Source of the DNA: Candidatus Saccharimonadales bacterium
Lineage (GTDB): Bacteria > Patescibacteriota > Saccharimonadia > Saccharimonadales > UBA4665
Length of the DNA stretch: 39,745 bases
Reading direction: 5' to 3'
NCBI GenBank assembly: GCA_025450135.1
Contig: JANWHZ010000024.1
Location: forward strand, 1-39,745
Both the position numbers and the translations under genes were made by a program. Below are positions 8,615 to 31,413 of this stretch, piece by piece. Numbering within the stretch: the first letter of the stretch is position 1; each line of letters begins with the position of its first letter. The notes below the pieces were generated by a model. It did no database searches and was not told the DNA's origin. It saw only the letters and a program-made list of their open reading frames with translations.

Positions 8615-9364
8615 CTACCCCACTGGGTGGGCGTGCGTGCCGAGGTAGCGCACCACGTCATTCAAGAGTTCTTGAGCAATCGCTCGCACGCTGCGTTCCT
8701 TAAACGGGTCATATTGCCCTGTCATAATCAGGCGGTCGATTTCCGCAATCGTGCCTTCGCGCGTATCGTTTAGGATAAAGCGGAAATAGTCGGCTCGGAG
8801 CGCAGTAGAGAGCTCCCGCTCGGCGCTTTCCATACGGCGCTGCAACTCATCAAGTGACATGCCGCCGCGCAAATGTAATCGCTCCATCCAGATATCAAAA
8901 CTGAGGGGCACCATAAAGATGAAAGTGGTGTCCGGCTTCAGCTTATGGATCTCCTGCGCGCCGACAATTTCGATATCGGTCAAGGCAATCTTGCCAGCAC
9001 TCTCGGCAGCCACGAGTTGATCACGGGGGATGCCGGACACTTGTTGATTGTGAATCACCGCCGCGCCGACCAGGTCACCTTTGTTGAGCTCAGTGAGCAT
9101 CTCGTCTTCGCTCAGGAACCAATATTCACGGCCATGCTGTTCTAAAACGCCGTTATTGATACGAGGTTCCCGGGTGGTATCCGTAATAAGCGGGAAATAG
9201 TGACCGGTCTTGACGAGCTCACCGATAATAGTATCGCGGCCAGTGCCGGTTGGAGCAACGAACAGTAACAGCCGCAGCCCGCCCAAGGTCTTGCGGACAT
9301 CGTCCGACGGTCGGTAATGTTCGAGGACTTTGCGGAACTCTTCGGCTTGGATTAGGGAACTCAT
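8615..9364 (-). CDS. Guanylate kinase-like protein with divergent P-loop
   Basis: LLLFVAPTGTGRDTIIGELVKTGHYFPLITDTTREPRINNGVLEQHGREYWFLSEDEM; GMPK-type architecture but GTGRD instead of GxGK. Confidence 0.75.
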   Translation of the reverse strand: MSSLIQAEEFRKVLEHYRPSDDVRKTLGGLRLLLFVAPTGTGRDTIIGELVKTGHYFPLITDTTREPRINNGVLEQHGREYWFLSEDEMLTELNKGDLVGAAVIHNQQVSGIPRDQLVAAESAGKIALTDIEIVGAQEIHKLKPDTTFIFMVPLSFDIWMERLHLRGGMSLDELQRRMESAERELSTALRADYFRFILNDTREGTIAEIDRLIMTGQYDPFKERSVRAIAQELLNDVVRYLGTHAHPVG

Positions 9365-9408
9365 GTACGTACTAAGCTTAGCAAGGAAAACAATAATAGG
9401 GCAAACAC

Positions 9409-10161
9409 CTAGACCCGCGCTGGCTGATGCGCAGCAATACTGAGCTTCAGGCTATAGGCTAGTGCGTTCGCCACTCGGTGCGCTGCTTCCTTCTCGGCGG
9501 TTTCCGGCTGGCCCGATGCAATTCGGCCCACTTCTGCTACGGCGTCCTCGAGTACGTTGTTAATCACAAACGAGAAGTACGGCGTACGTAGTGCATGCTC
9601 AATTTCTTGTAGAGCGGTAGCCATGCGTTTTTCGAAATCTGCTTGATCCATCGCGGCGCCATACCGTTTGGCAAGCCGGCTCTGCCACACCTCATAGTCC
9701 GGCGGTAGAATAAACACGGCTTTGGTGTTATTAGGATCGATCTTCATGTAATCGGCCACGCCTTGCACTTCCAGATCGGTAACCGCAATTTTGTGGGCAT
9801 CGTGCGCCGCCTGTACTTCAGCCGCGCTCGTGCCGTAGACGTTGCTACCATAAATATTTGCTTCAACGTAGGCACCATTGTCAACCATCCGTTCGGATTC
9901 TTCAAGCGTAATGAAGTGGTACTCGACACCATCTTGCTCCATAACCCCGTCGTTTTCGCGCGGGCTACGCGTAGTATGCGACACCAAGGTATAGTACTTT
10001 CCAGTTTTGAGCAGCTCATTGGTAATGCTGTCTTTACCCGCACCTGATATGCCAGCCAGTAGTAAGATTGGCGTCGACCGGACAAGCGTAATCGTTGCAG
10101 CCGAGGGCTGATATTTCTCGAGCTTTTCTTTCAGGCGGGCGTGGACTTCAGAGCCTTCCAT
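9409..10161 (-). CDS. gmk: Guanylate kinase family protein
   Basis: ILLLAGISGAGKDSITNELLKTGKYYTLVSHTTRSPRENDGVMEQDGVEYHFIT. Start moved to ATG 10161; a TATACT box ends 6 nt upstream. Confidence 0.8.
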   Translation of the reverse strand: MEGSEVHARLKEKLEKYQPSAATITLVRSTPILLLAGISGAGKDSITNELLKTGKYYTLVSHTTRSPRENDGVMEQDGVEYHFITLEESERMVDNGAYVEANIYGSNVYGTSAAEVQAAHDAHKIAVTDLEVQGVADYMKIDPNNTKAVFILPPDYEVWQSRLAKRYGAAMDQADFEKRMATALQEIEHALRTPYFSFVINNVLEDAVAEVGRIASGQPETAEKEAAHRVANALAYSLKLSIAAHQPARV

Positions 10162-10202
10162 GAAAGCAGTATACAGAGCGTAAACGGAATGATGCAATGA
10201 GC

Positions 10203-15996: not shown

Positions 15997-18492
15997 TTAT
16001 GACTTTTGCAGGTCGATTGTACCTTCAGTTTCTAGCGCGTGAAACCCGGATGGCATAGCTCCTGCTGGCTTGTGTTTGCGGTTTCGTTTGCGCTTGCGCT
16101 TCGACTTTGCGTCCCCGCTCTGCTCGGTCGTTGTTAGCGGCATATCGAGTGCGGGCACCGGTGTTTCTTGCAGCGGCCGAGCGGGTGCCGAATGTGGCGA
16201 CGGCTGCAAGAGGTAGTGCTCATTCACGTAGTGCTCCACGTACTCGCGGCTCGAGGCATACTGCGCCCGCGAGCGTTCGATAATCGTCGCTGTTTGGTCG
16301 GCCGCCAGCGGTGGTAAATTCAAGGTAATTGCCGAGAAGGCCGGCACCTTTTCCCCTTCGATCGTCATGTTGATCACGAAGTGACGATTGTGCATATGCA
16401 CCAAGTCGTATTCGGTGAACTTTGGCTCAAAGTAGCGGGTGAGTACCCGCGCATCATCGGCTGACATACGAAAGGCAATCATCGAGCCAACGTTGCCGAA
16501 TACGGCGTCTTTGACCGCCATCGACATTTGGGCAATATACTGATTAGCAACGGTCAAACTCAGACCATATTTGCGCGCTTCGGAGAGGATCGTGGCAAAA
16601 CTGTCGGTGGCAAAGTTCTGAAACTCGTCAACGTACAGATAAAACGGCTGGCGCTGCTCGGCCGGAATGTCAGCCCGGCTCATAGCCCCCAGCTGGATCT
16701 TAGTTACCAGCAGTGACCCGAGTAACGACGCATTGTCTTCGCCGATCAACCCCCGGCTAAGATTAACAATCAGTATCTTATGCTCGTCCATGATCTGGCG
16801 GATACTAAAACTGCTTTTGGGCTGTCCAATGATGTTGCGCACCAAGGGGTTAGCAGTGAATGCGCCCACCTTATTCAGCACCGGCGCCACAGCCTCCGCT
16901 GCAAACCGGTCGTTCCAGCTCGTAAACTCTATCTGCCAGAAGGCCCGCACTACAGGGTCGCTGACGTGCTTTAGCACTTCAGCTCGGAACCGCTTGTCGG
17001 TCAGCATACGCGTGATATCAAGCATGGTGGCGTTAGGGTAATCAAGCAAAGCGAGCAAACTGTAACGTAAGATGTACTCTAGCCGGGGGCCCCAGCTTTC
17101 AAACATTCGCTTTAGCACCCCGATCAGCTCGCTGGCGGTATGCATCTTCAGCTTCGGGTCAAGCACCTCCATGGGGTTGAAAGCCACCGGGTAATCGGTA
17201 TCTGCCGGGTTGAAGTAAACAACGTCCCCCGCCCGCTCCGGCGGAATCCGTGCCAGGACGTGCTGCGCGTAATCGCCATGGGGATCAACCACTGCAAAGC
17301 CGTAGGGGCTGTAAATATCTGAGATGGTCAGGAGCTCCAGCGTACCCGACTTCCCTGTCCCCGTCTGCCCGATGATATACAAATGACGGCTGCGGTCGAT
17401 CCGCGGCAGGCCGAACATAGTATTATGGCCTCTGAAGTTTGTGTTGGCGACCGGGCTCAGATCCTGGCGGTACACAGCAGTCACGACCGGTAAGCTCGCT
17501 GGCGGCTCGGCTGTTTGGGCACTTGCCCAGAGAATAAATGGCGTCTCAACATTAGTATGCGGCAGGTGGTACAGTGTCGCCATCTCTTCAATATTCAGGA
17601 GCAGTCCCTTCGAGACAAAGCCGCGCGCTTGGTATGCGCCAATCGATGAGAGGTCAGTAGCTATCCGCTTCTGAGTGAAGCCATTTAAGTACGTCGTGTT
17701 GAACTGCTTATAGCTGGCAACGATCGATTGCATCTGCAATTGCGCTTGTGGCAGCGGCACATTACCGCGATAGACGATGCGCACTAACGCTTCAAAAGCC
17801 AGTTTCTGGCTCTTGGCTTCAGCTGCTGAGGCCCGTACTTGGTCATACTCTGCCGGTTTGGGAGCCGCATCTTTTACTTCTGGCGGTGCCCACAGCACCG
17901 ACCAGAGACCGGTCATTTTCGGTCCTCCACCACGCTTAATCCCGGCGATATACCGTTCGCTTCGTTTGTGCCAGTTATCTGGCGCTGGTCGGGTTACTAG
18001 TTGGATCCACGCTTCCTCGTCATCGCCGAATTTAGCCAGCGTTGCGGTAATTGCCGCCAGCGGATCGACTTCAAAGCTCTGAAACGTCTTAATGGGCAAC
18101 ATTTCCGTCCCGGAGAACTTCAGCTCTGTAGACAGCGTGGTCATGTAGTCAACGTCTACTTGTTCGGCATAGTCTGGCACCTCAGATATTTGCACACTTG
18201 GGTACTGCGCGTAGATCTGCTCTTCAACAAAGCTCTTCAGATATTGTGGCACCCAGACGTAAAAACCGATCCGGCGTTTCAGTACTGCTACCTCGAAGCT
18301 GATGCGCTCTCGTTTCACCGGTGAGAGCATCCTGTTGGTCGGGACTGTTAACAGCCCATACAAGCTGGCAAACATTTGTTCCGCAGCCAGTTCTTTCTTT
18401 TCGTTCGTACGCGGTACTTGCAATAACAGCACCACGCCGCTTTCGTCATGCGGGGGATTTGCGTTGGAGTCAGAGGTAACTTGTTCTGCCAT
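15997..18492 (-). CDS. VirD4/TraG/HerA-like P-loop ATPase (type IV secretion coupling protein-like)
   Basis: Walker A IIGQTGTGKSGTLELL, VVDPHGDYAQHVL, Walker B YLYVDEFQNFATDSFATILSEARKYGLSLTVANQY; polybasic C-terminal patch KSKRKRKRNRKHKP. Confidence 0.85.
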   Translation of the reverse strand: MAEQVTSDSNANPPHDESGVVLLLQVPRTNEKKELAAEQMFASLYGLLTVPTNRMLSPVKRERISFEVAVLKRRIGFYVWVPQYLKSFVEEQIYAQYPSVQISEVPDYAEQVDVDYMTTLSTELKFSGTEMLPIKTFQSFEVDPLAAITATLAKFGDDEEAWIQLVTRPAPDNWHKRSERYIAGIKRGGGPKMTGLWSVLWAPPEVKDAAPKPAEYDQVRASAAEAKSQKLAFEALVRIVYRGNVPLPQAQLQMQSIVASYKQFNTTYLNGFTQKRIATDLSSIGAYQARGFVSKGLLLNIEEMATLYHLPHTNVETPFILWASAQTAEPPASLPVVTAVYRQDLSPVANTNFRGHNTMFGLPRIDRSRHLYIIGQTGTGKSGTLELLTISDIYSPYGFAVVDPHGDYAQHVLARIPPERAGDVVYFNPADTDYPVAFNPMEVLDPKLKMHTASELIGVLKRMFESWGPRLEYILRYSLLALLDYPNATMLDITRMLTDKRFRAEVLKHVSDPVVRAFWQIEFTSWNDRFAAEAVAPVLNKVGAFTANPLVRNIIGQPKSSFSIRQIMDEHKILIVNLSRGLIGEDNASLLGSLLVTKIQLGAMSRADIPAEQRQPFYLYVDEFQNFATDSFATILSEARKYGLSLTVANQYIAQMSMAVKDAVFGNVGSMIAFRMSADDARVLTRYFEPKFTEYDLVHMHNRHFVINMTIEGEKVPAFSAITLNLPPLAADQTATIIERSRAQYASSREYVEHYVNEHYLLQPSPHSAPARPLQETPVPALDMPLTTTEQSGDAKSKRKRKRNRKHKPAGAMPSGFHALETEGTIDLQKS

Positions 18493-18704: not shown

Positions 18705-19643
18705 ATGGATCAGACAGGAGGTGGTGAACTCTCCTTCACGAGTGATATTGCTGCAGCAGACGAACACGGACGAACCGAAGAGTTGCCGGTTGGCGTGGAG
18801 GATCTGCACAGGACAGCCGGCCCTATTGCTGCCCTACTTGGCAGATTATCTATTGGTGGCGAGTGCGTCTCGGGTCTGCTTGCCGCTAGCCAAGCGCACG
18901 CCAAAGAGCTGCTCAATAGAGTCCGCCACGGCTCCATAGATGCTCCGAATGGCACCCCAGCGCTACAAGCGTTGGAGCAAGTAGAGGCCAACGTTTCTCG
19001 GGCCTTCCGTAAGAGTGGAGAGTTAGCCCGTAATGCGCCGCGGGCTATTGTCGACTACGCAGCAATCGGCGCCATGGCCATCCTTGCGCTGATGGGCGCT
19101 ACCGATTGGGACACCCAACGTGATCGGATTGAACGACAAACGCCCTCAGGGCAGCTGCCGTACCAGCGCCCCACATCCCAACATTGGGTCCGTCCACGGT
19201 CGGCATTAACTCTAGACGTTTACCAAGTACGTGGTGGTGGTACACAGCCGCCAGAGTGGGTGGAACGATTATTTTTGCAACAAGAGCCTGCGCAGACTCT
19301 ACCCGCTTCCCGGCGTGTTGTACCCCATGAGAAGGCTGCTGCCGCGGCGCCCATCGTTACGCAACAGCAGGCCGACCTCGCTACTCGATATCTTACAGAA
19401 TTCCTAAGCGCTGGGCCAAGCCCTTGGGATGTACCCGTGCCGAGCTTTGCTGCAATGGCACAACGCACCAATAAAACTGCTAACCTGCCCGCTCCCCAGG
19501 ACCACCGACGTATTCGGGTACGAGTTGGCTCAATGACCATGGCATTTTCCGGCCCGACTCAAGATATCTACGGCCGTATAGGCGCATGGCGAACAATGCA
19601 CCCGGACGCGGAAATCATCAGCGACGAACCATTGTTTGTCTAA
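18705..19643 (+). CDS. Island protein 1 (312 aa), unknown, Lys-poor
   Basis: ORF with GAGG upstream of ATG 18705; 4 Lys, 1 Cys by manual count; possible TM near AIGAMAILALMGA. Confidence 0.75.
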   Translation: MDQTGGGELSFTSDIAAADEHGRTEELPVGVEDLHRTAGPIAALLGRLSIGGECVSGLLAASQAHAKELLNRVRHGSIDAPNGTPALQALEQVEANVSRAFRKSGELARNAPRAIVDYAAIGAMAILALMGATDWDTQRDRIERQTPSGQLPYQRPTSQHWVRPRSALTLDVYQVRGGGTQPPEWVERLFLQQEPAQTLPASRRVVPHEKAAAAAPIVTQQQADLATRYLTEFLSAGPSPWDVPVPSFAAMAQRTNKTANLPAPQDHRRIRVRVGSMTMAFSGPTQDIYGRIGAWRTMHPDAEIISDEPLFV

Positions 19644-19751
19644 GAGAGTAAGCCTCTCGATGTTCTTTGAAAACATAAAAGGAATTGGCGCGCTGTCATA
19701 AGCTGCCTTCCACCTCTGCACCTAATTCCCCGTATTGCCTATGTAATCATA

Positions 19752-19790
19752 TTGACAACTGCGGAAGTTAATGTATAATATTACTACATT
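19752..19790 (+). promoter_or_regulatory. Promoter of island gene 2 (leaderless)
   Basis: TTGACA (19752-19757) N16 TATAAT (19774-19779), 11 nt to ATG 19791. Confidence 0.75.
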
Positions 19791-20297
19791 ATGGCCACAT
19801 TACCCGGCGCATATCTATCTAGCCCCGAGCGGCGGCGGCTGGGCACTAACCCTGACTTGGTCAGGGCGATTGCCGCTATGGGCGATCGCGCTGCGAAGGG
19901 GGGGGCTAGGTATATTCCTGGTCAACTTTCACAGTATCGTCTGGCGCATGGCGAACAAGATGATGGGTTTCAATATCTAAGAGGCGCAGTGGTTGATGCT
20001 GCACGCGAGCATCGTGCTGCAACGGTTCTTGTAATGCCGCAGCATTCGACTTTACGCGAGCGCAGGAGAGCCCAGGACGCTGATCAGCTTAGGCATCAGC
20101 AAGCAGCATTTGCAGCACAAGTAATCCTAGAAGAGCTTCTCCAAGCAAGCGCAGCAGCCACAGCGTCTTTTGGCGCTGATCGTGACGACACTCCGGCAGC
20201 ACATGAAGCAGCTTGGCAAGCTGGTTTTGATGTCTACCAGAGGCATCATCCAGAGAGCCCACGCTACGATTTAGGTGCTACTGACGGCCCGCGATAA
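19791..20297 (+). CDS. Island protein 2 (168 aa), unknown, Lys-poor
   Basis: ORF immediately downstream of a consensus promoter; 1 Lys in 168 aa. Confidence 0.7.
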   Translation: MATLPGAYLSSPERRRLGTNPDLVRAIAAMGDRAAKGGARYIPGQLSQYRLAHGEQDDGFQYLRGAVVDAAREHRAATVLVMPQHSTLRERRRAQDADQLRHQQAAFAAQVILEELLQASAAATASFGADRDDTPAAHEAAWQAGFDVYQRHHPESPRYDLGATDGPR

Positions 20298-20383
20298 TAG
20301 ACACTGTTAACGAAGTGTTAGACCCACATCGTAGCTTGGCGAGATAGTAGTTGGGTCTGACTTATAAACGTATTAAGACGCTT

Positions 20384-21385
20384 GTGTCCAATGTAGCATT
20401 CTCGTAGCCAGGAATACCTTATAGGTATTCCACGGGCGTACGCATGCGGAGCATGCTATGCGGCCGGAAGAAGTTGTAATCCAAGCAGTCCTCAACGAGG
20501 AATGCTTGTAATTCTGCTTTCTGGTAGCTGTTGGTCGTCAGCTTCTTGTAGCTATCCTAGTCGACGCCGTGAGATCGCTCAATCTGACCATTGGGATGCG
20601 GGCTTCGGGGTGATATCCGGCCGTGATGGATATTGTTAGCGGTGAGCCACCGTTGTACGGCGGTCAAAGTGTCTGGCTTGGTTTGTGGCAACTGGTCGTA
20701 GACGAACTTCATGCCGTTGTCGGTCTGGATACAACGGAAGGAGAAAGCTGGGGCAAAGAAACGGATAGCATGCTCCAGGAATCCCACAGTGTAAACGGGG
20801 TTCACTCCCGGATATAGTCGCTTGTATTTAATCCTGGTAGCACAGTCAACAATGTCGTACTGGTACGCAGCATACTTCCAGTGTTTGACGTCCAGTTGGC
20901 CAACTTCATACGGTTGGTACTGGTGCTACTGAGCCGACGCTGGGTGTATGGCCTACGCGTTTTGGCACCGTAAGTTTTGCCCGGCGGAGAACACTACCAA
21001 CTGCATGCCGCGAGACGGCAATGCCGTAATCCCGGGCCAGTACCACGGCCAGCTTCGCTTCACCGTAGCCGAGACCTAGTCGCAACTGGACAATGAGGCT
21101 GGTCGTTTCATCACTCAAATCGGCTCTGTGCGATTTGGCGTTTTCGGCATGTCGTGCAAGCTGGTAAGTTTCTTGTTGTTGGCAAGCCAACGACTGTGCG
21201 AGTAGTAGTATTCACTCCTGGCAATGCTGTAGTGTTTGCAAGCTGCGGTAACACTGTCGAGTTCCTTGGCAGCCCGAAACCCAGCAAAACGGATACGAGC
21301 TCCATATACCTGAAGTTGTTTTCCGGTCATGACTCTTGTCCTCACTTACACTCCTTTCTAATCTGGTAAAAGTGTCCAAGATGTA
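20384..21385. mobile_element. IS remnant bounded by similar end motifs
   Basis: GTGTCCAATGTA (20384-20395) and GTGTCCAAGATGTA (21372-21385) flank the transposase pseudogene, in direct rather than inverted orientation. Boundaries tentative. Confidence 0.45.
20415..21345 (-). pseudogene. Degenerate DDE transposase (IS3/IS481-like, rve integrase core)
   Basis: Fragments in successive frames: MTGKQLQVYGARIRFAGFRAAKELDSV..; LSDETTSLIVQLRLGLGYGEAKLAVVLARDYGIAVSRHAVGSVLRRAKL; IQTDNGMKFVYDQLP...HHGRISPRSPHPNGQIERSHGVD*; after an in-frame stop DSYKKLTT...LVEDCLDYNFFRPHSMLRMRTPVEYL. Confidence 0.88.
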
Positions 21386-21415
21386 CGGGATCGAATAATA
21401 TTCTATGCTAGTAAG

Positions 21416-21444
21416 TTGACTAATAATCTTATTTAGTTTAAAAT
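21416..21444 (+). promoter_or_regulatory. Promoter of island gene 3
   Basis: TTGACT (21416-21421) N17 TAAAAT (21439-21444). Confidence 0.6.
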
Positions 21445-21495
21445 AAAGGTTTTAGTGTTCACTGATACTCAGTAAGCAACGGAGAACAAAGTAAG

Positions 21496-23463
21496 ATGAG
21501 CAGAGGTGAAGGGTTACGTCCTTCTGGTGTAGTAGATGATGCATACTCCTCTTGGGAGTATGCATTGCCGTTGTCTGAAACCCTAGAACGCGGCGTAGGC
21601 TATGATGGTCCACGGACAGACAACGATACATTGGGCGCTAGACGAGCTGGCCGCACGGCCGTCTTGCATTATAAACGTGACGAAGCGGCAGTGCCTCCTG
21701 TCGCCTACATGGATAACCCTGGTGAGTTCGAAGAGGCTGCGCCTGAAAGAAGTGATGAACAAGGCCAAGTTCGGTTAGAAGGGCCTTATGGTACCTGGCA
21801 AGATTTGAGACAACAGCATGATCCCTATGAAGGGCTCACGCCTTGGCAGCGCGGCGCAGAAGATCGACAAAGTGCTTGGGGCGAGGTCCTCCAAGTCGCT
21901 AGCCGTGTTCTCCCTGAACGTATCCGACCTCACATTCGCTCTCGTTGGGACGCTACGCCTGGGATGGCCTGGGAAAGTGCGGTTTTCCTAACAGGAACGT
22001 ACGTAAAACATTTGTTTGATGTGGTTACATTCAGGCAACGTGTACCTCGTGAGGCTGCATGCCAAGAAGCCCCGCAGGCTCGCCGTGATCGTCCGCCAGT
22101 AGAACGTCGGCGCACAAGCGATGTGGTGAGCGCTGTGGTGGGTACGGCTGGTGATGTTGCCGCAGGATTCGCAGGTGTTGCCCTTAGCGCGGCTGACCGA
22201 GCAATCTCGGGCCTTGAATACGTCGTGTACAGCGCCGGACGACACCTTCGTAGAACAGGTAATCATATTGGTGAGACACGCGTCTGGCATGCCGCCGAGC
22301 AGGTCGCTGACACAGCCACCGGATACGCACTTTATGGTGTACTTGTGGGGGGCGCGGCTACGCTGCTCTTCCTCAGTAATCCGTGGTATTATATCGGTCC
22401 TGAAGGCCGTGCAGAGAGGCGCCGTGTACATGCTAGCTTGGATAATCTACGTTTCGGCTCAAGCGTTGCGGCTAGAGGTGAGGAATCTGCCCACGATGCT
22501 GCCCATACTACCTCGCTCCATGAATCTGACCGGCAGCTTGCAGCGCTTATAGATCGCCAACGCCGTCACGTAGAAATAGATAGTTCGTGGAGAAGTGACG
22601 ATTCCGTACCCACGCCTCAATCCTTATTTTCACAGACAGCATGGCCATTAGTCCGTGCCCACCTGGGTCGTATTAACCTTGGCGAAGCAGATAGCCCAGT
22701 ATTGGTCGCTACGCGAGAAACTATCGCGGCAGTTATACGGCAAATCTCAGATGAGCCTCAGGCATTTGCTGCAACTACTCACGTATATGCACTAGACATC
22801 TCCAAGAGCCTAGCTGCAATGTTCCCTGAGACAGAGTCGGGCTGTAAAGCGCGTGGCCTCTCACTGAAAGACGTGGTAGCCACTGTCCTGGAACGCTTAG
22901 GCGTGGGTGATACTGATATAGATCGTAGGCTAGATGTGCTTGCCCTCATGGCAGATCATCTCAGCCAATTTACATTACCTGACATGCCACCAGCCAGTAA
23001 CCCTCCAGTTGCAGGCAGTCCCGCGACTGCTATGGCACCTCGCTCAGCGCCCGAACATACGATAGTCAACGACGATTTCATTGTTCCGTTCATGAGAATT
23101 CTTGCCTATGACCAGCAAAGGCCAGCCAGTGCTAACGATGACTTGTGGCAGGGTGCGCAGCGGCATGCGGCAATCATACGTGAGGATCTTGTGGCAATGG
23201 GCTTCGAAACGATATTGACGGAGCTGGATGAGGTAACCAACGTTAACGACGCTATCGCAACTGCATTAGTTACTGAGGGCCTGGTCAGCAAAAAAGCTGT
23301 CGATGACGGTGACGTTTCAAGCATATTTTATGCAGGGACGTATAACACTGGCACTATTGACACGATAGCCGCGTGCCTACGAGCGTATCATTATTCGCGC
23401 GTATTCCTGAGCCGGTCTGTAAACGGTGGTTCCTCAGCCGAAGCAATTTTGCCTCAGGCCTAG
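21496..23463 (+). CDS. Island protein 3 (655 aa), unknown, Lys-poor, central predicted TM segment
   Basis: ORF with GGAG upstream; 7 Lys in 655 aa; hydrophobic TGYALYGVLVGGAATLLFLSNPWYYIG. Confidence 0.8.
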   Translation: MSRGEGLRPSGVVDDAYSSWEYALPLSETLERGVGYDGPRTDNDTLGARRAGRTAVLHYKRDEAAVPPVAYMDNPGEFEEAAPERSDEQGQVRLEGPYGTWQDLRQQHDPYEGLTPWQRGAEDRQSAWGEVLQVASRVLPERIRPHIRSRWDATPGMAWESAVFLTGTYVKHLFDVVTFRQRVPREAACQEAPQARRDRPPVERRRTSDVVSAVVGTAGDVAAGFAGVALSAADRAISGLEYVVYSAGRHLRRTGNHIGETRVWHAAEQVADTATGYALYGVLVGGAATLLFLSNPWYYIGPEGRAERRRVHASLDNLRFGSSVAARGEESAHDAAHTTSLHESDRQLAALIDRQRRHVEIDSSWRSDDSVPTPQSLFSQTAWPLVRAHLGRINLGEADSPVLVATRETIAAVIRQISDEPQAFAATTHVYALDISKSLAAMFPETESGCKARGLSLKDVVATVLERLGVGDTDIDRRLDVLALMADHLSQFTLPDMPPASNPPVAGSPATAMAPRSAPEHTIVNDDFIVPFMRILAYDQQRPASANDDLWQGAQRHAAIIREDLVAMGFETILTELDEVTNVNDAIATALVTEGLVSKKAVDDGDVSSIFYAGTYNTGTIDTIAACLRAYHYSRVFLSRSVNGGSSAEAILPQA

Positions 23464-23581
23464 CTGTATCTGTAATATAAACATGAGCAGTAACATAATC
23501 ATCTTGACTTTTTGGGCAGTTGCTGCTAGTGTATATGTATTGTCATTATCATAAGCGGAAATTATTAAAGAAGAGAATAAT

Positions 23582-25780
23582 ATGTCACAAGCAGCTCCTA
23601 ATCCACGTGATTTTCCTCAAGACGCTCGACAACAAACGAGAGAATGGGATGCGATTGCTGGCTTTGACGCGGAATTGGTTGATGCTGATCGTATTCCTGA
23701 CGCTGATACGTTTCCGCTATTGCAAGCTTACCGTGGAACTGCTGACCATGTAGGTCAACCTGGCCACAACGGACAACGTGATGGATTTGAACGTCGTGGT
23801 TCTGCAGATGGGCCAACCGGTCCACAACTTGCAGGCGGCGCTAGAAATGCTGATGGGGGCCAGCGTGCACCACATCCTAGACACCCATTTGCACAAAGAA
23901 CACCTCTGGGTGACCGCATTGGTCATAGAGCAGATGTCCGCGGTGACGATGAAGCTCCTGACCATGAGACCCCAGCCGTGCGTCCACAACACGGGCAACA
24001 TAGGGGCCAGGGCTCTGAACCACGGAGAGTGGGAACCGACACAAGCGAATACCCTGCCTTGCCAAGGCCTCCTCGACCCGCGCGTCGTCCAACTAGTAGA
24101 GGCAGTGATGGTGGTCGTGTCACCCCAGCCCAAGCTGAAACAGGACAACGAGCCCAACAAGTTAGAACAGGTGGCGAACAAAGTCCACCATGGGAAGATG
24201 ATGAAGAAGATCAAAGAATTGATCAACGTCCTACAGCCCCGCTACCTATAGCGCGCGCGCCACAACCTCGTGTAGACAGATTGATTAGACTAAGGCATGG
24301 TGCAGGTGCAAACCTAGCAAGAGTTGGCGTTGGGTTAGCACATGGACCAGAGGCTGGTAGGCAGGCACATGATCAGGTTTTGGCGCGCGGTGAAGCTGCA
24401 CGTCGGGAGGCTGATGCCCACGTGGGTGAACACTGGGCTAACATTAGGCGCTCTGCGGCTGCACGTTGGGCTGGAATGATGGCGCTAGCAGGCGGATGGA
24501 ATACTGGGAGCGGAAGATACAGGACTGAACGCCAAAGGCATGCTCATCTGAACCATATAGATATGGTCAACCGGATGGGTGGGAACTATGCTTATCCTTT
24601 CCCGGATACCCGCCCCGGCGGTGAACATGATCCTCATAGGCAATCTGATCAAGCTACAGACCCTAGGGATCCGATTATACTTAGCAGCCCCGTGTCTCTA
24701 CCTCATGAACACAGGGATAGAATACGCGCGGGACTTGCCAATGGAACTATCTTGCATAGGATCGGCGGTGATGGCGGTCATGAGTTCTACCAACGTATGC
24801 GATTAGGTGAAGCAGATGAACCGCACCCTCAGCAAGGGCGCAGCGAGGGCGCTGAAGGTGGACGTCCTGAAGGTCAACCTGATGACACTGCGCAGCGTCT
24901 CCTAGCTGCACCATCGGCCCGCGCTCAGAGTGAAGCTGCTGCACGGGATGACCGTCCTGAATGGATGCCCCAAGATGGAGGGAGACAATTCTACCTAGGT
25001 CGAGCCAGGTTAGAACTTAATGATCTCGTCAGACAATTGGGCCAGCCCACACGTGCTCAAGCCGAACAATGGATGGAGCAGCGAGCACGACAAATGTATG
25101 ATAATGATCGTGCAAGCGGTTATCCACGTTTGCGAGAACAGTACGAAAGAATGTTGGAAGCCCAGCGACAAGATCCTGCGTATCAACGTCGGCTGGCAGT
25201 CGAACGTAATGCAGCTCAGCGACATGAAGCAGCTCAGCGTGAAGCAGCATTAGCGAGCAGCACAGACCCTGATGTGATTGAGGCTAGGCGATTGTTTGCA
25301 CGAGATAAGCATCTCATCCCTGATGATCAGCAGCCTGGATGGGTTGAACGAACAAGAGCTTCCCTAGCATCACAACGTGAACTCGATCGTGAAGCTGCTG
25401 AAAGAGCACGACGAGCTCGCGAGGAGCAACAAGCTAGAGATTTAGCATATGAACGTGCCTACGTGCTGCGGCGGGCTAATGGCATTGCCGATATGTTTGG
25501 TGCACAGATGGGCGCAAAACGTGCTACATTCCCTCCTGAAACCGAACGTGAGACTATGCTAGCTGCACTGGATGCCGCTGAAGAATTTGTCGCAGATGCG
25601 GAAGCTAATAACAGGCGCTTGTGGCAAGCACGTCACTTAGATCAGCTTAGGCAGCAAATAGTACGCGCAGCAGCTACTACGATAGTTCGGGAAGGTATTA
25701 CCCCAACTGAAAGTAGATTGCTAGCGGGAGCCTTTGCTCGCGAACTATTCGGTATGCAACTGGATATAGGCACTCGATAA
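23582..25780 (+). CDS. Island protein 4 (732 aa), unknown, extremely Arg-rich and nearly Lys-free
   Basis: Long ORF preceded by AAAGAAGAG; 2 Lys, about 105 Arg, no Cys seen; low-complexity N-terminal half, helical charged C-terminal half. Confidence 0.8.
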   Translation: MSQAAPNPRDFPQDARQQTREWDAIAGFDAELVDADRIPDADTFPLLQAYRGTADHVGQPGHNGQRDGFERRGSADGPTGPQLAGGARNADGGQRAPHPRHPFAQRTPLGDRIGHRADVRGDDEAPDHETPAVRPQHGQHRGQGSEPRRVGTDTSEYPALPRPPRPARRPTSRGSDGGRVTPAQAETGQRAQQVRTGGEQSPPWEDDEEDQRIDQRPTAPLPIARAPQPRVDRLIRLRHGAGANLARVGVGLAHGPEAGRQAHDQVLARGEAARREADAHVGEHWANIRRSAAARWAGMMALAGGWNTGSGRYRTERQRHAHLNHIDMVNRMGGNYAYPFPDTRPGGEHDPHRQSDQATDPRDPIILSSPVSLPHEHRDRIRAGLANGTILHRIGGDGGHEFYQRMRLGEADEPHPQQGRSEGAEGGRPEGQPDDTAQRLLAAPSARAQSEAAARDDRPEWMPQDGGRQFYLGRARLELNDLVRQLGQPTRAQAEQWMEQRARQMYDNDRASGYPRLREQYERMLEAQRQDPAYQRRLAVERNAAQRHEAAQREAALASSTDPDVIEARRLFARDKHLIPDDQQPGWVERTRASLASQRELDREAAERARRAREEQQARDLAYERAYVLRRANGIADMFGAQMGAKRATFPPETERETMLAALDAAEEFVADAEANNRRLWQARHLDQLRQQIVRAAATTIVREGITPTESRLLAGAFARELFGMQLDIGTR

Positions 25781-25794
25781 TATATTTAATAATC

Positions 25795-25831
25795 AAGTAG
25801 AGCACCATAAAAAATGGTGCTCTACTTTTTT
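25795..25831 (+). terminator. Rho-independent terminator after island gene 4
   Basis: AAGTAGAGCACCAT-aaaaa-ATGGTGCTCTACTT perfect 14-bp stem followed by T-tract. Confidence 0.93.
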
Positions 25832-25906
25832 GTGATGCAGAAAAATATGTGCACACGTATTTTTTTCGGTTCACCGTAGGTTGCAAAAGATTACAATGCA
25901 ACCACA

Positions 25907-25944
25907 TTGACTATCAGGCTTATTAGTAGTATAATATTGTCATT
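25907..25944 (+). promoter_or_regulatory. Promoter of island gene 5 (leaderless)
   Basis: TTGACT (25907-25912) N17 TATAAT (25930-25935), 9 nt to ATG 25945. Confidence 0.78.
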
Positions 25945-28035
25945 ATGGCTGCAGTGCAAGAACAAGTACTCGATGATTTACCAGAATTTCACGTCACAGA
26001 TGCTGGGCTACAAAGCCTTAGCCAAGCATTGGAACGAGTACATGCGACGGCTCAGCTCCGCCTTATGCCAGACACAGATCGAGCCGGCGCACAAGCAAGC
26101 GACGATCGTGGAGCCGCTGATGATCCCCTACCACATGATGAACATGAGGCACCAGCTGAACGTCGCACATTGGCAGCGCGTGGTTTAGGTGCAGCTGCAG
26201 CCAGTGACGTAGCACCACAAGCAAGTCGCACCCCAAGGCAACGTGAACATACCCTCGCGGATGCAGCTGATCCAAGTAGACGCAGGCGAACCCGTCGCGC
26301 TAGTACAAGCGGCGCTGATGAACATCGCGATCGCGATGTTTCTGATGGATCTGGCGCCAGCGCAGTCGCCGCTCTGCCTCGTACCACTAGAGGCTTTGCT
26401 GCGGTATCTCCTACAGCACCTGCTCACGCGAGTGGCGACATAGCCGAAGCACGTAGCTCAGATACACCTACGCTGCCACCAAGCGCTGGGTTATCACCTG
26501 CACACTTTGCACATATGGGAGACTTGTTCCTCACAGATGAAGAAGCTCGAGCCGTAGCTGATAGCCATAATAGAGCACACGGAATCTCACATAACGCTGA
26601 CAACCCCAGCGCCCCCCATTTCGCCCAGTTAATTGAAGCGGGAGCCAAGATTACTCTTGATACAGACCCCGAAATTCTTCACCAAGCATTGACATTGGTT
26701 GCGCTTAATCATCGTGACCCTGCAAGAGCATTACCCAACATTATTCGAGCTGACTTGCCAGACGATCAAGTAGCACACTTGATCGGCATAGCTTGCACAG
26801 AAGCAGCGAGTTTGCGCTCTAATGCTGTATTTGCGCTGCAAGGTGACCTCACGTCGATATCTCAATCAATCCAGCCCATAAGCCCAGACGAGTTGGGGCG
26901 AGCTCATGCTATGATCGGCCGCATCTCTGATAGAATCGTACTTGATCAACGCGCCCTTGCAGATTTCAGGTCGCGCATGCCAGGTGAACTTTACGAACGT
27001 ATTGCAATCGCAACGCGTATTGATCCTACAATAGCAGCAGCAAGGGCGCTTGAGTCGGCTACAACCGAATATCTCATGTGGCAGTGGCAACGAATTCAGG
27101 CTTCTCAACAAGCACCCAGCATTGCTACAGCTTCTTTAGTTGAATCACAAGCTACAGACAGACCCCAAGCAAGGAGACCTTTCCCAGCGCAATTGGGCGA
27201 GCGAAAGAGATTAGATCAAGAACAGCGGCATGCTCAAGAATTGGTAAGAACTCTTATACTTAGGCTACAGCGGTCACAGCATGAAGTAAGGGATGCTGAC
27301 GTTCCCCGACGTCAAAGACAAGCAGCATTGCGGGGTGCGGCACTTCAGCAACTCCGCCTGAATGATGCAGAGTGGGGTGATATTTCAGGCAGCGAAGAAA
27401 TGTGGCTCATTCACCGAACATTAGTTAACAGATTTGGAACTACTGAAGGTTACGATTATGAGGCGGTAGACAGTGCAGCGCAGGCACGTCTCGGCGTTAG
27501 TGTAGATGAATTAATTGCTGCGAGTATTAAAAGGACTCTCGGTTTACACGGTGACGTAGGCGCCATTATGACTGTTCTTAATGATTTCACCTTAAACGGC
27601 CTAGGTTACACTCCCGCCACGGCACATCCAAGGGATACTGGTATGAGACACCAGGCACGTATGTTGGCAGGTGGTGCGAGACGCAGGATGTTTGAGATGA
27701 TGCCGAGAAGCGAAGCCGTACGCCTTGAACAAGCTCGCCTTCAGCCACGTAGGCTTGGTGCACAACCACCTGCAGTGAATTTGGTAAGTCTGCACCAACG
27801 CACACTGCAGCAAGCTCAACAACGACGGTCTGAAGTACTAGGCGGCGCCAGCGAAACACCTCGTCGAGTAGCAGTGGCGGCAAGGCGTGTTAGACCTAGC
27901 TTAGGTAGCAACCCGGGTGACACAGGAGGCGTAAATGGTGGACGGCCTGCAAGTAGGAGCGCTGCCGCGTCTGAGACCCGCACAGCAAACGAGGCACTAG
28001 GACAAGATGATGATCCAGACGGGTGGATAAAGTAG
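25945..28035 (+). CDS. Island protein 5 (696 aa), unknown, Lys-poor
   Basis: ORF immediately downstream of a consensus promoter; 4 Lys and 1 Cys in 696 aa. Confidence 0.8.
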   Translation: MAAVQEQVLDDLPEFHVTDAGLQSLSQALERVHATAQLRLMPDTDRAGAQASDDRGAADDPLPHDEHEAPAERRTLAARGLGAAAASDVAPQASRTPRQREHTLADAADPSRRRRTRRASTSGADEHRDRDVSDGSGASAVAALPRTTRGFAAVSPTAPAHASGDIAEARSSDTPTLPPSAGLSPAHFAHMGDLFLTDEEARAVADSHNRAHGISHNADNPSAPHFAQLIEAGAKITLDTDPEILHQALTLVALNHRDPARALPNIIRADLPDDQVAHLIGIACTEAASLRSNAVFALQGDLTSISQSIQPISPDELGRAHAMIGRISDRIVLDQRALADFRSRMPGELYERIAIATRIDPTIAAARALESATTEYLMWQWQRIQASQQAPSIATASLVESQATDRPQARRPFPAQLGERKRLDQEQRHAQELVRTLILRLQRSQHEVRDADVPRRQRQAALRGAALQQLRLNDAEWGDISGSEEMWLIHRTLVNRFGTTEGYDYEAVDSAAQARLGVSVDELIAASIKRTLGLHGDVGAIMTVLNDFTLNGLGYTPATAHPRDTGMRHQARMLAGGARRRMFEMMPRSEAVRLEQARLQPRRLGAQPPAVNLVSLHQRTLQQAQQRRSEVLGGASETPRRVAVAARRVRPSLGSNPGDTGGVNGGRPASRSAAASETRTANEALGQDDDPDGWIK

Positions 28036-28068
28036 CTGCTACGGTCTTAGCGACAGCATTACTTTGTA

Positions 28069-28096
28069 TTGACTTTTCTGGTTTTTGTATTACAAT
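28069..28096 (+). promoter_or_regulatory. Promoter of island gene 6
   Basis: TTGACT (28069-28074) N16 TACAAT (28091-28096). Confidence 0.65.
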
Positions 28097-28132
28097 TTAG
28101 CGACACGTTTTAACCTGTCAGTGGGAAGAGAT

Positions 28133-29506
28133 ATGACGAGAGATTTAGGCGCAGGACGGTCTGGCCCAGCATCCCCAGAACTTACAGTTGAGCCCACTCA
28201 TGCTGATTTTGATACGGCCGAAGTAGATGACCTTACAGCCGAAATAAGCTTGACGAATATCGAAGGAGCGGCGGTTGTTCACGCGCTGGTAAATGGTGCA
28301 CTTGAACGACTGGAACAAGAGGCCGCTAAACCTGATGACATACCAGTTACCGGCAGAATGACCACCGCACAGGCTAAGCATCTTCTAAAAACATTACGGA
28401 GCCAATTTCCTTCAAGAGCCGAGCGAGAAGAAGTAGTTCTAGATGATCAGCAGTTAGATGGTATACCGAGTTTACCAGGTTTTAGACCGTTTGCGCGGGT
28501 CATACAAACCGAGACTATTGTGGCACTTGACGGGCGTTACGGTGAAGGATTCACGCGACAACAACTTGCTGAGCTTGTTAGACGCCGCGACCAGCGAGCT
28601 ATAACAGCCGGAACCGCGGGCCCATCTATAGTTGCGGCTACTCTAGAGGCTCCCGGAGCGATGTGTGTCGGCGATGAACAGGACCAATGGGCAGACACGC
28701 CTGATAATGAGTTTGGCTATAGGTGGCGAGACTTCCAACTGTATGTTGGTGACATCCCGTTTAATATCTGGTATAGCTTACTACATGGAGCAGCAGCTCG
28801 GTTCTTGCAGCAGCTCCGGAGCCAAGGTCAAACCGACCTGCCAGACGTGGCGCCTATCCACCCAAATGATCTTAGAGATCATTTGGCAGCAGCCAAAGCT
28901 GAAGGCAGGCCTCTTGTCATGAGGACTAGTACTAGGCTTCCAATCCTTACGAGCTGGGATACTGATCTGGACGTACGTGCGATAAATCGTACATTTCACC
29001 AGTTAGGCTACCCTGGAGACCGAAACTTTTTATACGATGCCTTGTACCCGGCACTTGAAGCAGCACCGCTTCGGCGTGGCAGGCTATGTGAACGAAGACC
29101 TATTCCAGCGCCTCATGTACCGGAGGGACGAGACCTCTGGGTTAGTATGGCTCAGGATACTTCTACTGTACTACGGAGGCATGAAGGGCATTTGGTGCTG
29201 TCTGAGAATGGTCCTACCGACACTACTGGCCTGGCTCGTTCTACAACAGGAGGTGCACCAGCCACAGCCAGTCGAGTTCCTCTAGAACCGGAATATGATG
29301 ACTATGACGAACCGGGGGGTGAAGAAGCTGAAGCTGAACCAATACTAAAACCAAGCGGTTATACGCTCGCCCGTATACATGCAATGAACGTTGCAATGGA
29401 CGAGACAGAGGGGCTACACGGCATGTGGGAATGGACAGGAATGTATTTTGTACAGCGCCCTTTGCTTGCAGGACTCTTCGTACTTCAGCGGGTCGTCAGG
29501 CGATAA
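28133..29506 (+). CDS. Island protein 6 (457 aa), unknown, Lys-poor
   Basis: SD GGGAAGAG before ATG 28133 (MTRDLGAGRSGPASPE); the track start at 28085 overlaps the promoter. 5 Lys. Confidence 0.78.
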   Translation: MTRDLGAGRSGPASPELTVEPTHADFDTAEVDDLTAEISLTNIEGAAVVHALVNGALERLEQEAAKPDDIPVTGRMTTAQAKHLLKTLRSQFPSRAEREEVVLDDQQLDGIPSLPGFRPFARVIQTETIVALDGRYGEGFTRQQLAELVRRRDQRAITAGTAGPSIVAATLEAPGAMCVGDEQDQWADTPDNEFGYRWRDFQLYVGDIPFNIWYSLLHGAAARFLQQLRSQGQTDLPDVAPIHPNDLRDHLAAAKAEGRPLVMRTSTRLPILTSWDTDLDVRAINRTFHQLGYPGDRNFLYDALYPALEAAPLRRGRLCERRPIPAPHVPEGRDLWVSMAQDTSTVLRRHEGHLVLSENGPTDTTGLARSTTGGAPATASRVPLEPEYDDYDEPGGEEAEAEPILKPSGYTLARIHAMNVAMDETEGLHGMWEWTGMYFVQRPLLAGLFVLQRVVRR

Positions 29507-29544: not shown

Positions 29545-31413
29545 CTAGTACAGAGCGGCAGCTTTAGGCATGGTCGCGCCTTTGAACAGTAACTCTACTT
29601 CTTCGCCTTCGACGGTCTCTTTTTCGAGCAAGACTTCCTTGAGTGCTTTTAGGTGCGACATATTGGCTTTGATAACCGCACGAGCACGATTCGCGGCTTC
29701 AGTAATGAGCGCCTCGACTTCATCATCAATAACCTTGGCTGTTTCGTCGGAGTATTCCCGCTCATGCACCATACGCTCCAGCATCATCCCTTCGTCGACA
29801 TGAAACACCTGGTCGCGAAGCTTCTTACCCATACCTTGGTTGACCACCATATCTCGCGCAATCTCAGCCGCCTTCTGGAGGTCATTACCACCACCAGTAG
29901 TGATGCGATCAGCACCGTATACTAACTCTTCGGCAACACGGCCGCCGAGAGCGCGGGCCAACACGTCTTTGTATTCAACGAGCGACGTATAGACACGGTC
30001 TTCGGGCGGAAGGAACCAGGTCACACCGCCAGTGCCACCGCGTGGAATGATGGTAACTTTATGTACTGGATCGCTGTCAGGCAGCACGTGGCCGACAATC
30101 GCATGGCCGGCTTCGTGAAAGGCAGTCAGTTCTTTTTCCTTCTCATTCATAACGCGGCTCTTACGCTCCGGGCCAATAGCGACGCGCTCGAACGCATCTG
30201 TCACGTCGCTCTGACTGATCTGGCTATGGCCATTTCTGGCGGCAATGATCGCTGACTCATTAGCGATATTAGCCAGGTCCGCACCTGAGCTGCCGGCTGT
30301 TTTGGCAGCTAACGAGTCAAGGTCGACAGTCTTAGCCAGTGGCTTCTTCACAAAGTGTACTTTGAGGATTGCTTCACGGTCCTTGCGTTCCGGCAAGCCG
30401 ATGTCGACACGACGGTCGAAGCGGCCGGGTCGCAAGAGTGCCGGGTCGAGTACGTCGGCGCGGTTCGTCGCAGCCAGCACGATAACATTCTGCCCCTGCT
30501 CGAAGCCATCCATCTCTACCAGAATCTGGTTCAGCGTCTGCTCACGCTCATCATGCCCGCCCCCCATACCGGAACCGCGGCGGCGCCCAACAGCGTCTAT
30601 TTCATCAATAAAGATAATACACGGCGAGTTCTTCTTGGCTTTCGCAAACAGGTCACGAACGCGTGAGGCACCGACACCGACAAACATTTCGACGAACTCT
30701 GAACCGGAAATGCTGAAAAACGGGACATTGGCTTCGCCAGCCACGGCGCGGGCAAGCAGTGTCTTGCCAGTACCAGGAGGGCCGACTAGCAGCACTCCTT
30801 TCGGAATGCGAGCCCCCATCGCGGCAAACTTCTTGGGGTACTTTAGAAATTCAACGACTTCCTGCAGGTCCTGCTTGGCTTCGCCTGAGCCGGCAATGTC
30901 GCTGAAGGTCGCCTTCTTGTGCTCGTTGCCATACAGCCGGGCTCGGCTCTTGCCGAAGCTGAGCGCTTGGTTGCCCTGCCCTTGGGCGCTTCTGAGCATG
31001 ATGTACATCAAGCCGACAAAGAGCACCGGTATCACAATGTAGCTGCCGATCGTCAGCCAGGTGTCATAGCCCGATGACGTCGACTTGGCTTGAATCGCTA
31101 CTTTTGAGTAATTGAAGCCTTCGTCTTTTAGTGTGGCATTCGGCTCTGTAAATGTCTTCAGCGTGGCCGTTGGCTCACCTTTCTTGGTAATGTCGAGCTG
31201 ATTGCCGTCGACCACGATCTTGCTGTAATCTCCGGCGTTGGCCTCTTGCACTGCCTGGGTCAGCGGAATTTCTTTCAGGCTGGTCGATTGGTTGGTGACG
31301 CCGAGTAGGACAAGTCCGATCAGCGCCACGAGGGTGATAAAGACGATGTTCTTGAGCATGCGCGACCGGTTGCTGCCAGGACCGCTACGCTTAACGGGAA
31401 ATTTATTATCCAT
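29545..31413 (-). CDS. ftsH: ATP-dependent zinc metalloprotease FtsH
   Basis: [26 protein letters not shown] region, [10 protein letters not shown] zinc site. Confidence 0.98.

What the first reader, a model, noticed from the sequence alone, without database searches (positions are those of the whole stretch)
23582..25780. 732-aa protein with about 105 Arg, 2 Lys and no Cys
The most extreme island member: Arg is about 14% of residues, with an R:K ratio near 50:1. The first ~230 residues look disordered (G/P/H/R/Q/D-rich). The C-terminal ~300 residues look like long charged helices (AERARRAREEQQARDLAYERAYVLRR). Both surviving lysines lie in the C-terminal third (ARDKHLIP, GAKRATF). There is no Sec signal. 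This suggests strong selection on Lys-to-Arg replacement rather than drift.
Basis: seen in the sequence. Interest (0 to 1): 0.7.

Follow-up and report, generated by a model that had tools for sequence, protein, structure and literature searches.

The report
Lysine-stripped orphan proteins in inserted island
A tiny, probably parasitic bacterium carries an inserted block of six genes, unlike any found in the databases searched, from whose proteins lysine has been almost entirely removed by natural selection, possibly to survive a lysine-targeting disposal system inside its host bacterium.

Summary
In detail: window 23582-25780 encodes 732 aa with 105 Arg, 2 Lys (K576, K646) and no Cys. The lysine loss acts on the protein and is not a base-composition effect. 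AAA/AAG triplets are depleted only in the reading frame (2 seen, 19.6 expected) and near normal in the other two (40 vs 41.5; 17 vs 23.4). Third-position GC is only 0.34, which should favour lysine. The frame-specific loss also shows the ORF is translated. The gene is one of six Lys-poor, Arg-rich genes (18705-29506) inserted between a VirD4/DUF87-like ATPase gene and ftsH, which lie 38-263 bp apart in eight relatives; the island also holds transposase remnants. No homologue of this protein turned up in 393 same-order genomes, GTDB, IMG/VR, phages, plasmids, PDB or family libraries. About 15 more Lys-depleted soluble proteins lie elsewhere in the genome; the relatives sampled show very few. 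A kinase and an aminotransferase among them keep their catalytic lysines. The protein is charge-neutral (net -2), so nucleic-acid binding is not favoured. Best guess: exported effectors avoiding lysine-directed modification (Pup) in an actinobacterial host. Selection against Lys is well supported; export, host and Pup are inferred.

The parts
23582..25780 (+). The 732-aa Arg-rich, Lys-stripped orphan (P0001): disordered polyampholyte 1-227, helix 228-307, disordered 308-464, helical region 465-723
   Evidence: no homologue
18705..19643 (+). Island gene 1, 312 aa, K 4, R 27, one hydrophobic segment, orphan
19791..20297 (+). Island gene 2, 168 aa, K 1, R 19, orphan
20557..21345 (-). Decayed transposase fragments (rve-like piece 20557-20805; HTH_21-like piece 20906-21190)
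   Evidence: ORFs; Pfam rve E=3.3e-4 and HTH_21 E=0.011, both below gathering cut-offs
21496..23463 (+). Island gene 3, 655 aa, K 7, R 59, orphan
25795..25827 (+). Strong intrinsic-terminator-like hairpin 15 bp after P0001 (14 pairs, T tail)
25907..25935 (+). Sigma-70-like promoter TTGACT-17-TATAAT just upstream of island gene 5
   Evidence: 11 of 12 matches
25945..28035 (+). Island gene 5, 696 aa, K 4, R 78, disordered N-terminal third, orphan
28085..29506 (+). Island gene 6, up to 473 aa, K 5, R 43, orphan; true start may be the ATG at 28133
19752..19779 (+). Perfect sigma-70-like promoter TTGACA-16-TATAAT before island gene 2
   Evidence: 12 of 12; 21 promoter-like sites in the region against 9.9 +/- 2.7 expected
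15997..18492 (-). Left flank: 831-aa DUF87/VirD4-like (T4SS coupling protein-like) ATPase, conserved in relatives
29545..31413 (-). Right flank: FtsH; in eight relatives directly next to the left-flank gene

Best explanation
P0001 is a real, translated, lineage-specific protein in an 11-kb insertion of six orphan genes. SHOWN: lysine is removed by selection at the protein level. The island split a conserved ftsH / VirD4-like gene pair, and the same Lys depletion marks about 15 other soluble, mostly orphan proteins of this genome. INFERRED: these are proteins the epibiont delivers into, or onto, a host cell, and lysines were replaced, often through AAR-to-AGR codon changes, so that they are poor substrates for lysine-directed tagging, most plausibly pupylation by the Pup-proteasome system of an actinobacterial host. 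P0001 itself would be a large, mostly disordered and helical charge-balanced effector or scaffold whose long life depends on having no tag sites.
For: AAR triplets depleted only in frame 0 for P0001 (2 vs 19.6), the island (o/e 0.29 vs 0.96 and 0.80) and 15 other genes (0.35 vs 0.93 and 0.96), background 1.26 (the 15 were chosen for low Lys, so their frame-0 value is expected, but their normal frames 1 and 2 are informative). Relative to background, Lys o/e is 0.08 in P0001 while Arg is 1.52. AGA/AGG share of Arg 0.31 (island) and 0.28 (other set) vs 0.14, still higher against low-GC3 genes (p=2e-7, 6e-6), while Leu TTR and Ser AGY shares stay near background in the other set. Enzymes of the class keep catalytic-site Lys: kinase K113 and K246 (HDLKPEN), aminotransferase K266 (SASKIMG). 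Lys-depleted proteins are mostly orphans: 18 of 20 vs 222 of 459 (p=3e-4). Genome has no detected 20S proteasome, Pup or Pup ligase, so self-pupylation is not the obvious cause. Precedents: lysine deserts concentrate in Actinobacteria with Pup and in mycobacteriophages (PMC10665810); ER-translocating toxins avoid ubiquitin by lacking Lys (PMC4030972); Saccharimonadales carry T4SS and effector genes and correlate with Actinobacteriota (PMC12592800).
Against: Export was not shown: no secretion signal is known for this system, and the paper on patescibacterial T4SS notes that the coupling protein may be exapted (PMC12102498). The host is unknown and so is its Pup system. Sampled relatives, probably with similar hosts, show very few such proteins (6 of 997 vs 13 of 479), so the pressure is not general. 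The class boundary is partly circular because members were chosen for low Lys. The assignment to Saccharimonadia is my inference from genome size and gene content; no tool named the organism.
Confidence: 0.4

Rival explanations
1. Structural or biophysical need: the proteins are disordered Arg/Asp/Glu polyampholytes (condensate or surface-matrix formers) in which Arg cannot be replaced by Lys; nothing to do with tagging.
For: P0001 is charge-balanced, Q/G/P/H/R rich and low-confidence over most of its length.
Against: Depletion also occurs in folded enzymes (kinase, class I/II aminotransferase, ThiF-like) and in the helical part of P0001 (465-646 has 32 R, 2 K). It removes Lys in all contexts rather than adding Arg motifs.
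Confidence: 0.2
2. The island is a fragment of a phage or mobile element whose own proteins are Lys-poor.
For: Insertion at a site empty in eight relatives; transposase remnants inside; orphan genes in one direction.
Against: No match to PHROGs, 50,697 phage records (P0001 and gene 5), plasmids (P0001) or IMG/VR (P0001 and gene 3); no integrase, portal, terminase or replication gene; each gene tends to have its own promoter; similar Lys-poor genes are scattered over many contigs. Origin on a mobile element would not by itself explain the Lys loss.
Confidence: 0.15
3. Base composition or foreign high-GC DNA: Arg-for-Lys is a by-product of GC pressure in a donor.
For: GC1 0.73 and GC2 0.54 resemble high-GC organisms.
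Against: GC3 is 0.34, below the genome's 0.51, and Arg codons are shifted to AGA/AGG, the opposite of a high-GC donor; Lys is depleted far below what the gene's own position-specific composition predicts, in one frame only.
Confidence: 0.06
4. Avoidance of a lysine-directed modification in the bacterium's own cell (own Pup-like tagging, acetylation).
For: Three same-order relatives encode Pup plus a Pup-ligase-family protein with no 20S proteasome, so pupylation exists in the order; the MAG is only 86.9% complete.
Against: Neither Pup nor its ligase was found in this genome; housekeeping proteins (DnaK K 66, FtsH K 44) have ordinary Lys; the sampled parts of G094, which has Pup, show no strong class.
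Confidence: 0.12
5. Nucleic-acid-binding protein that prefers Arg.
For: 14.3% Arg.
Against: Net charge -2 overall and between -6 and +5 in every segment; no nucleic-acid-binding domain.
Confidence: 0.05

Closest known systems
Lysine deserts of Pup-bearing Actinobacteria and mycobacteriophages (Szulc 2023, PMC10665810)
   Same: Long Lys-free stretches, read there as avoidance of pupylation; phages of Pup-bearing hosts carry more of them.
   Different: Here the genome is about 52% GC with ordinary average Lys (4.2%), the trait is confined to a subset of mostly orphan genes, and the owner is a probable epibiont rather than a phage or a Pup-bearing cell.
Lys-poor A chains of ER-translocating AB toxins (reviewed in PMC4030972)
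   Same: Arg far exceeds Lys, Lys kept mainly where activity needs it, explained as escape from host ubiquitin tagging.
   Different: Eukaryotic host and ubiquitin there; here a presumed bacterial host and Pup. No toxin activity or homology was found here.
Candidate effector clusters and T4SS of Saccharimonadales (PMC12592800, PMC12102498)
   Same: Same probable order; putative exported effectors; a coupling-protein-like gene is next door.
   Different: None of the six island proteins matches any known family; secretion is untested; the neighbouring ATPase gene is conserved without the island.

Membership tests
Lysine-desert protein (PMC10665810: at least 150 aa, or at least 50% of the length, without Lys) | Lys-free stretch of the stated length | tested here: met
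   575 of 732 residues in one Lys-free run
Lysine-desert protein (PMC10665810: at least 150 aa, or at least 50% of the length, without Lys) | Conservation of the desert in orthologues | not testable with these tools
   No orthologue found in 149 relatives, 393 same-order genomes, GTDB, IMG/VR, phages or plasmids
Pup-evading effector | Lys removed by selection on the protein | tested here: met
   Frame-specific AAR depletion and AGR enrichment
Pup-evading effector | Transfer into a Pup-bearing host | not testable with these tools
   Host and secretion signal unknown
Patescibacterial T4SS effector | Recognised by the T4SS or coupling protein, or homologous to a known effector | tested here: inconclusive
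   Adjacent VirD4/DUF87-like gene, but that gene is present in relatives without the island; no homologue of any island protein in the family libraries
Phage structural or mobile-element protein | Match to phage families or records | tested here: not met
   No PHROGs family for P0001 and no phage record or IMG/VR relative
Nucleic-acid-binding basic protein | Net positive charge or a binding domain | tested here: not met
   Net charge -2; no Pfam domain
Recent transfer from a high-GC genome | Raised GC3 and GC-rich Arg codons | tested here: not met
   GC3 0.34; AGA/AGG 34% of Arg codons vs 14% in the genome

The most novel reading that the evidence does not exclude
An epibiotic bacterium has a whole class of effectors, including an inserted island and a kinase, stripped of every dispensable lysine to escape the Pup tagging system of its bacterial host: the bacterium-on-bacterium counterpart of ubiquitin-evading toxins.
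Probability: 0.25. Interest if true: 0.85.

Novelty: new variant of a known kind. Interest (0 to 1): 0.6.

Why it matters
If the reading holds, Lys depletion becomes a sequence signature for finding effectors of uncultured epibionts, which have almost no recognisable homologues, and it would point to the Pup system as a host defence against bacterial parasites. Even without Pup, the frame-specific lysine loss is a clean case of whole-protein selection against one amino acid in a bacterium, and it proves translation of orphan genes that have no homologues to compare.

Tried and rejected
Orthologue alignment of P0001: impossible, no homologue. Homologues of island genes 3, 5 and 6 in 60 relatives each: none; gene 6 in GTDB: none. 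Base-composition explanation: rejected by the frame test and GC3. Nucleic-acid binding: not favoured, neutral charge. Structure: AlphaFold2 without an alignment gave mean pLDDT 51 (P0001) and 41 (gene 5), too low for a fold search, which I did not run. Anti-phage defence: no PADLOC match. A Dop/PafA 'depupylase effector' in relatives looked attractive, but three of the eight carriers found also encode Pup, so an own pupylation system is at least as likely there. Acidic N-termini of Lys-poor proteins (+3.4 vs -1.0) may simply follow from the missing Lys and are not claimed as a signal.

Full report
OBSERVATION. The ORF at 23582-25780 (+) is exactly as described: 732 aa, 105 Arg, 2 Lys, 0 Cys. 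The window is one whole contig (C24) of an 829-kb, 58-contig, 86.9%-complete genome. I read about 750 kb of it in fetched stretches and called genes by longest non-overlapping ORF. The genome average is ordinary: Lys 4.2%, Arg 5.5% over 575 proteins of at least 150 aa.

IS IT COMPOSITION? No. In P0001 the first, second and third codon positions are 73%, 54% and 34% GC (genome 58, 42, 52). Third-position pressure in this gene is AT-rich and would favour Lys. Counting AAA and AAG in all three frames against the gene's own position-specific base frequencies gives 2 vs 19.6 in frame 0, 40 vs 41.5 in frame 1 and 17 vs 23.4 in frame 2. For the six island genes together the ratios are 0.29, 0.96 and 0.80; for ordinary genes 1.26, 1.17 and 0.90. 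The DNA word is tolerated; the amino acid is not. This also shows that frame 0 is translated and selected, which synonymous codon usage alone did not show. Corrected for composition and relative to background genes, Lys is at 0.08 in P0001 and 0.23 in the island, by far the strongest depletion of any residue that is common here (Cys, rare in this genome, is 0 in P0001 and 0.34 in the island), while Arg is at 1.52 and 1.44.

LYS-TO-ARG. AGA/AGG, one transition away from AAA/AAG, make up 31% of island Arg codons and 28% in the other Lys-poor genes, against 14% in background genes; in the other Lys-poor genes the analogous shares for Leu and Ser do not move. The excess remains against low-GC3 genes (p = 2e-7 and 6e-6). 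For P0001 alone it is not decisive: at its GC3 background genes already reach 28%.

THE ISLAND. Six + strand ORFs (18705-29506) carry 0.3-1.3% Lys and 8.7-14.3% Arg. They lie between an 831-aa DUF87/VirD4-like ATPase gene and ftsH, both on the - strand. In eight relatives these two genes are neighbours, 38-263 bp apart, with tilS following. A ninth relative (L101) has a different gene, 994 aa, at the same place. The island is therefore an insertion, perhaps at a hot spot. Between genes 2 and 3, fragments of a decayed transposase lie on the - strand (weak Pfam matches below the gathering cut-offs plus the visible TDNG...HPNGQIERSHG motif). Genes 2 and 5 have near-perfect sigma-70-like promoters close to the start codon, promoter-like sites are twice as many as expected, and P0001 ends in a strong terminator-like hairpin. 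The genes look individually expressed.

RELATIVES. P0001 has no relative in 149 relatives, 393 same-order genomes, GTDB contigs, IMG/VR, phages, plasmids, the PDB, Pfam, PHROGs, NCBIfam or PADLOC. Genes 3, 5 and 6 have none in 60 relatives each; the other searches covered only some of them. The pattern-based scans find close relatives only.

A GENOME-WIDE CLASS. Thirteen of 479 soluble proteins are significantly Lys-depleted (p < 0.01), against 6 of 997 sampled from related genomes (p = 0.002; 0.014 without the window). With a stricter cut (at least 200 aa, at least 15 Arg, Lys share below 0.1) there are 9 here and 2 in the relatives, both of which look like spurious ORFs (GC1 of 0.84 in one; 17 Cys in 235 aa in the other). 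Members are mostly orphans (18 of 20 vs 222 of 459 without a homologue in the relatives' DNA; p = 3e-4); the comparison DNA was incomplete, and island genes are not independent. Two members are recognisable enzymes: a protein kinase (Pfam E = 4e-10) whose seven Lys include those of the ALK and HDLKPEN motifs, and a class I/II aminotransferase (E = 2e-28) whose four Lys include the one in the SASKIMG motif, the PLP lysine by family knowledge. Lys is kept where catalysis needs it.

MECHANISM. Shown: protein-level selection against Lys, in a class of mostly lineage-specific proteins, some on an inserted island. Inferred: the shared pressure is something that acts on lysines of these proteins and not on housekeeping proteins (DnaK has 66 Lys, FtsH 44). 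A different cellular location is the simplest reason. This looks like a small-genome Patescibacterium, most likely Saccharimonadia (my inference from genome size and gene content; no tool named it); cultured members are epibionts of Actinobacteria (general knowledge; PMC12592800 supports the link for activated sludge). Many Actinobacteria tag lysines with Pup. Lys deserts have been linked to Pup in Actinobacteria and mycobacteriophages (PMC10665810), and Lys-poor toxin chains escape ubiquitin in eukaryotes (PMC4030972). Escape from Pup in the host is therefore my leading mechanism, at about 25% for the full statement and 40% for export plus escape from some lysine-directed process. Against it: no export evidence, unknown host, and relatives without the trait.

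SIDE FINDING. Some Saccharimonadales relatives carry a Pup-ligase-family gene (G004, G007, G094, G095, G102, G105, G200), and G094, G095 and G200 also match the Pup family, in G094 with a 65-aa protein ending GGQ. None of these has a 20S proteasome match. A library search for Patescibacteria with pupylation found no paper. The window's genome has neither gene.

VERDICT. Selection on Lys is well supported; nucleic-acid binding is not. The kind is known (lysine deserts); an inserted island of orphan, Lys-stripped proteins in a probable epibiont is a new variant.

Noticed in passing
L164:1489-1683; L155, L156, L157, L158, L159, L161, L162: Same-order relatives encode Pup-ligase-family (PafA/Dop) proteins, and three (G094, G095, G200) also match Pup, with no 20S proteasome: pupylation seems to exist in Saccharimonadales. 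No paper found.
   Followed up: partly
window 20557-21345 (-): Decayed transposase remnants (rve and HTH pieces) between island genes 2 and 3.
   Followed up: partly
L101:2636-5617: In relative G028 a different 994-aa gene (30 Lys, 6 Arg) sits between the same two flanking genes, so the site may be an insertion hot spot.
   Followed up: no
L020:4038-5351 and L049:7020-8279 (same genome): A Lys-poor protein kinase and a Lys-poor aminotransferase that keep their motif lysines.
   Followed up: partly
L042:2999-6323, L015:8080-10020, L029:5999-6970, L031:14776-15828: Further strongly Lys-poor orphan proteins outside the window, some in pairs.
   Followed up: partly
window 8615-10197 (-): Two adjacent paralogue-like proteins that look like guanylate kinases (visible P-loop; not run against families).
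   Followed up: no
window 15997-18492 (-): The VirD4/DUF87-like protein ends in a strongly basic Lys/Arg tail (KSKRKRKRNRKHK), in contrast to its Lys-poor neighbours.
   Followed up: no
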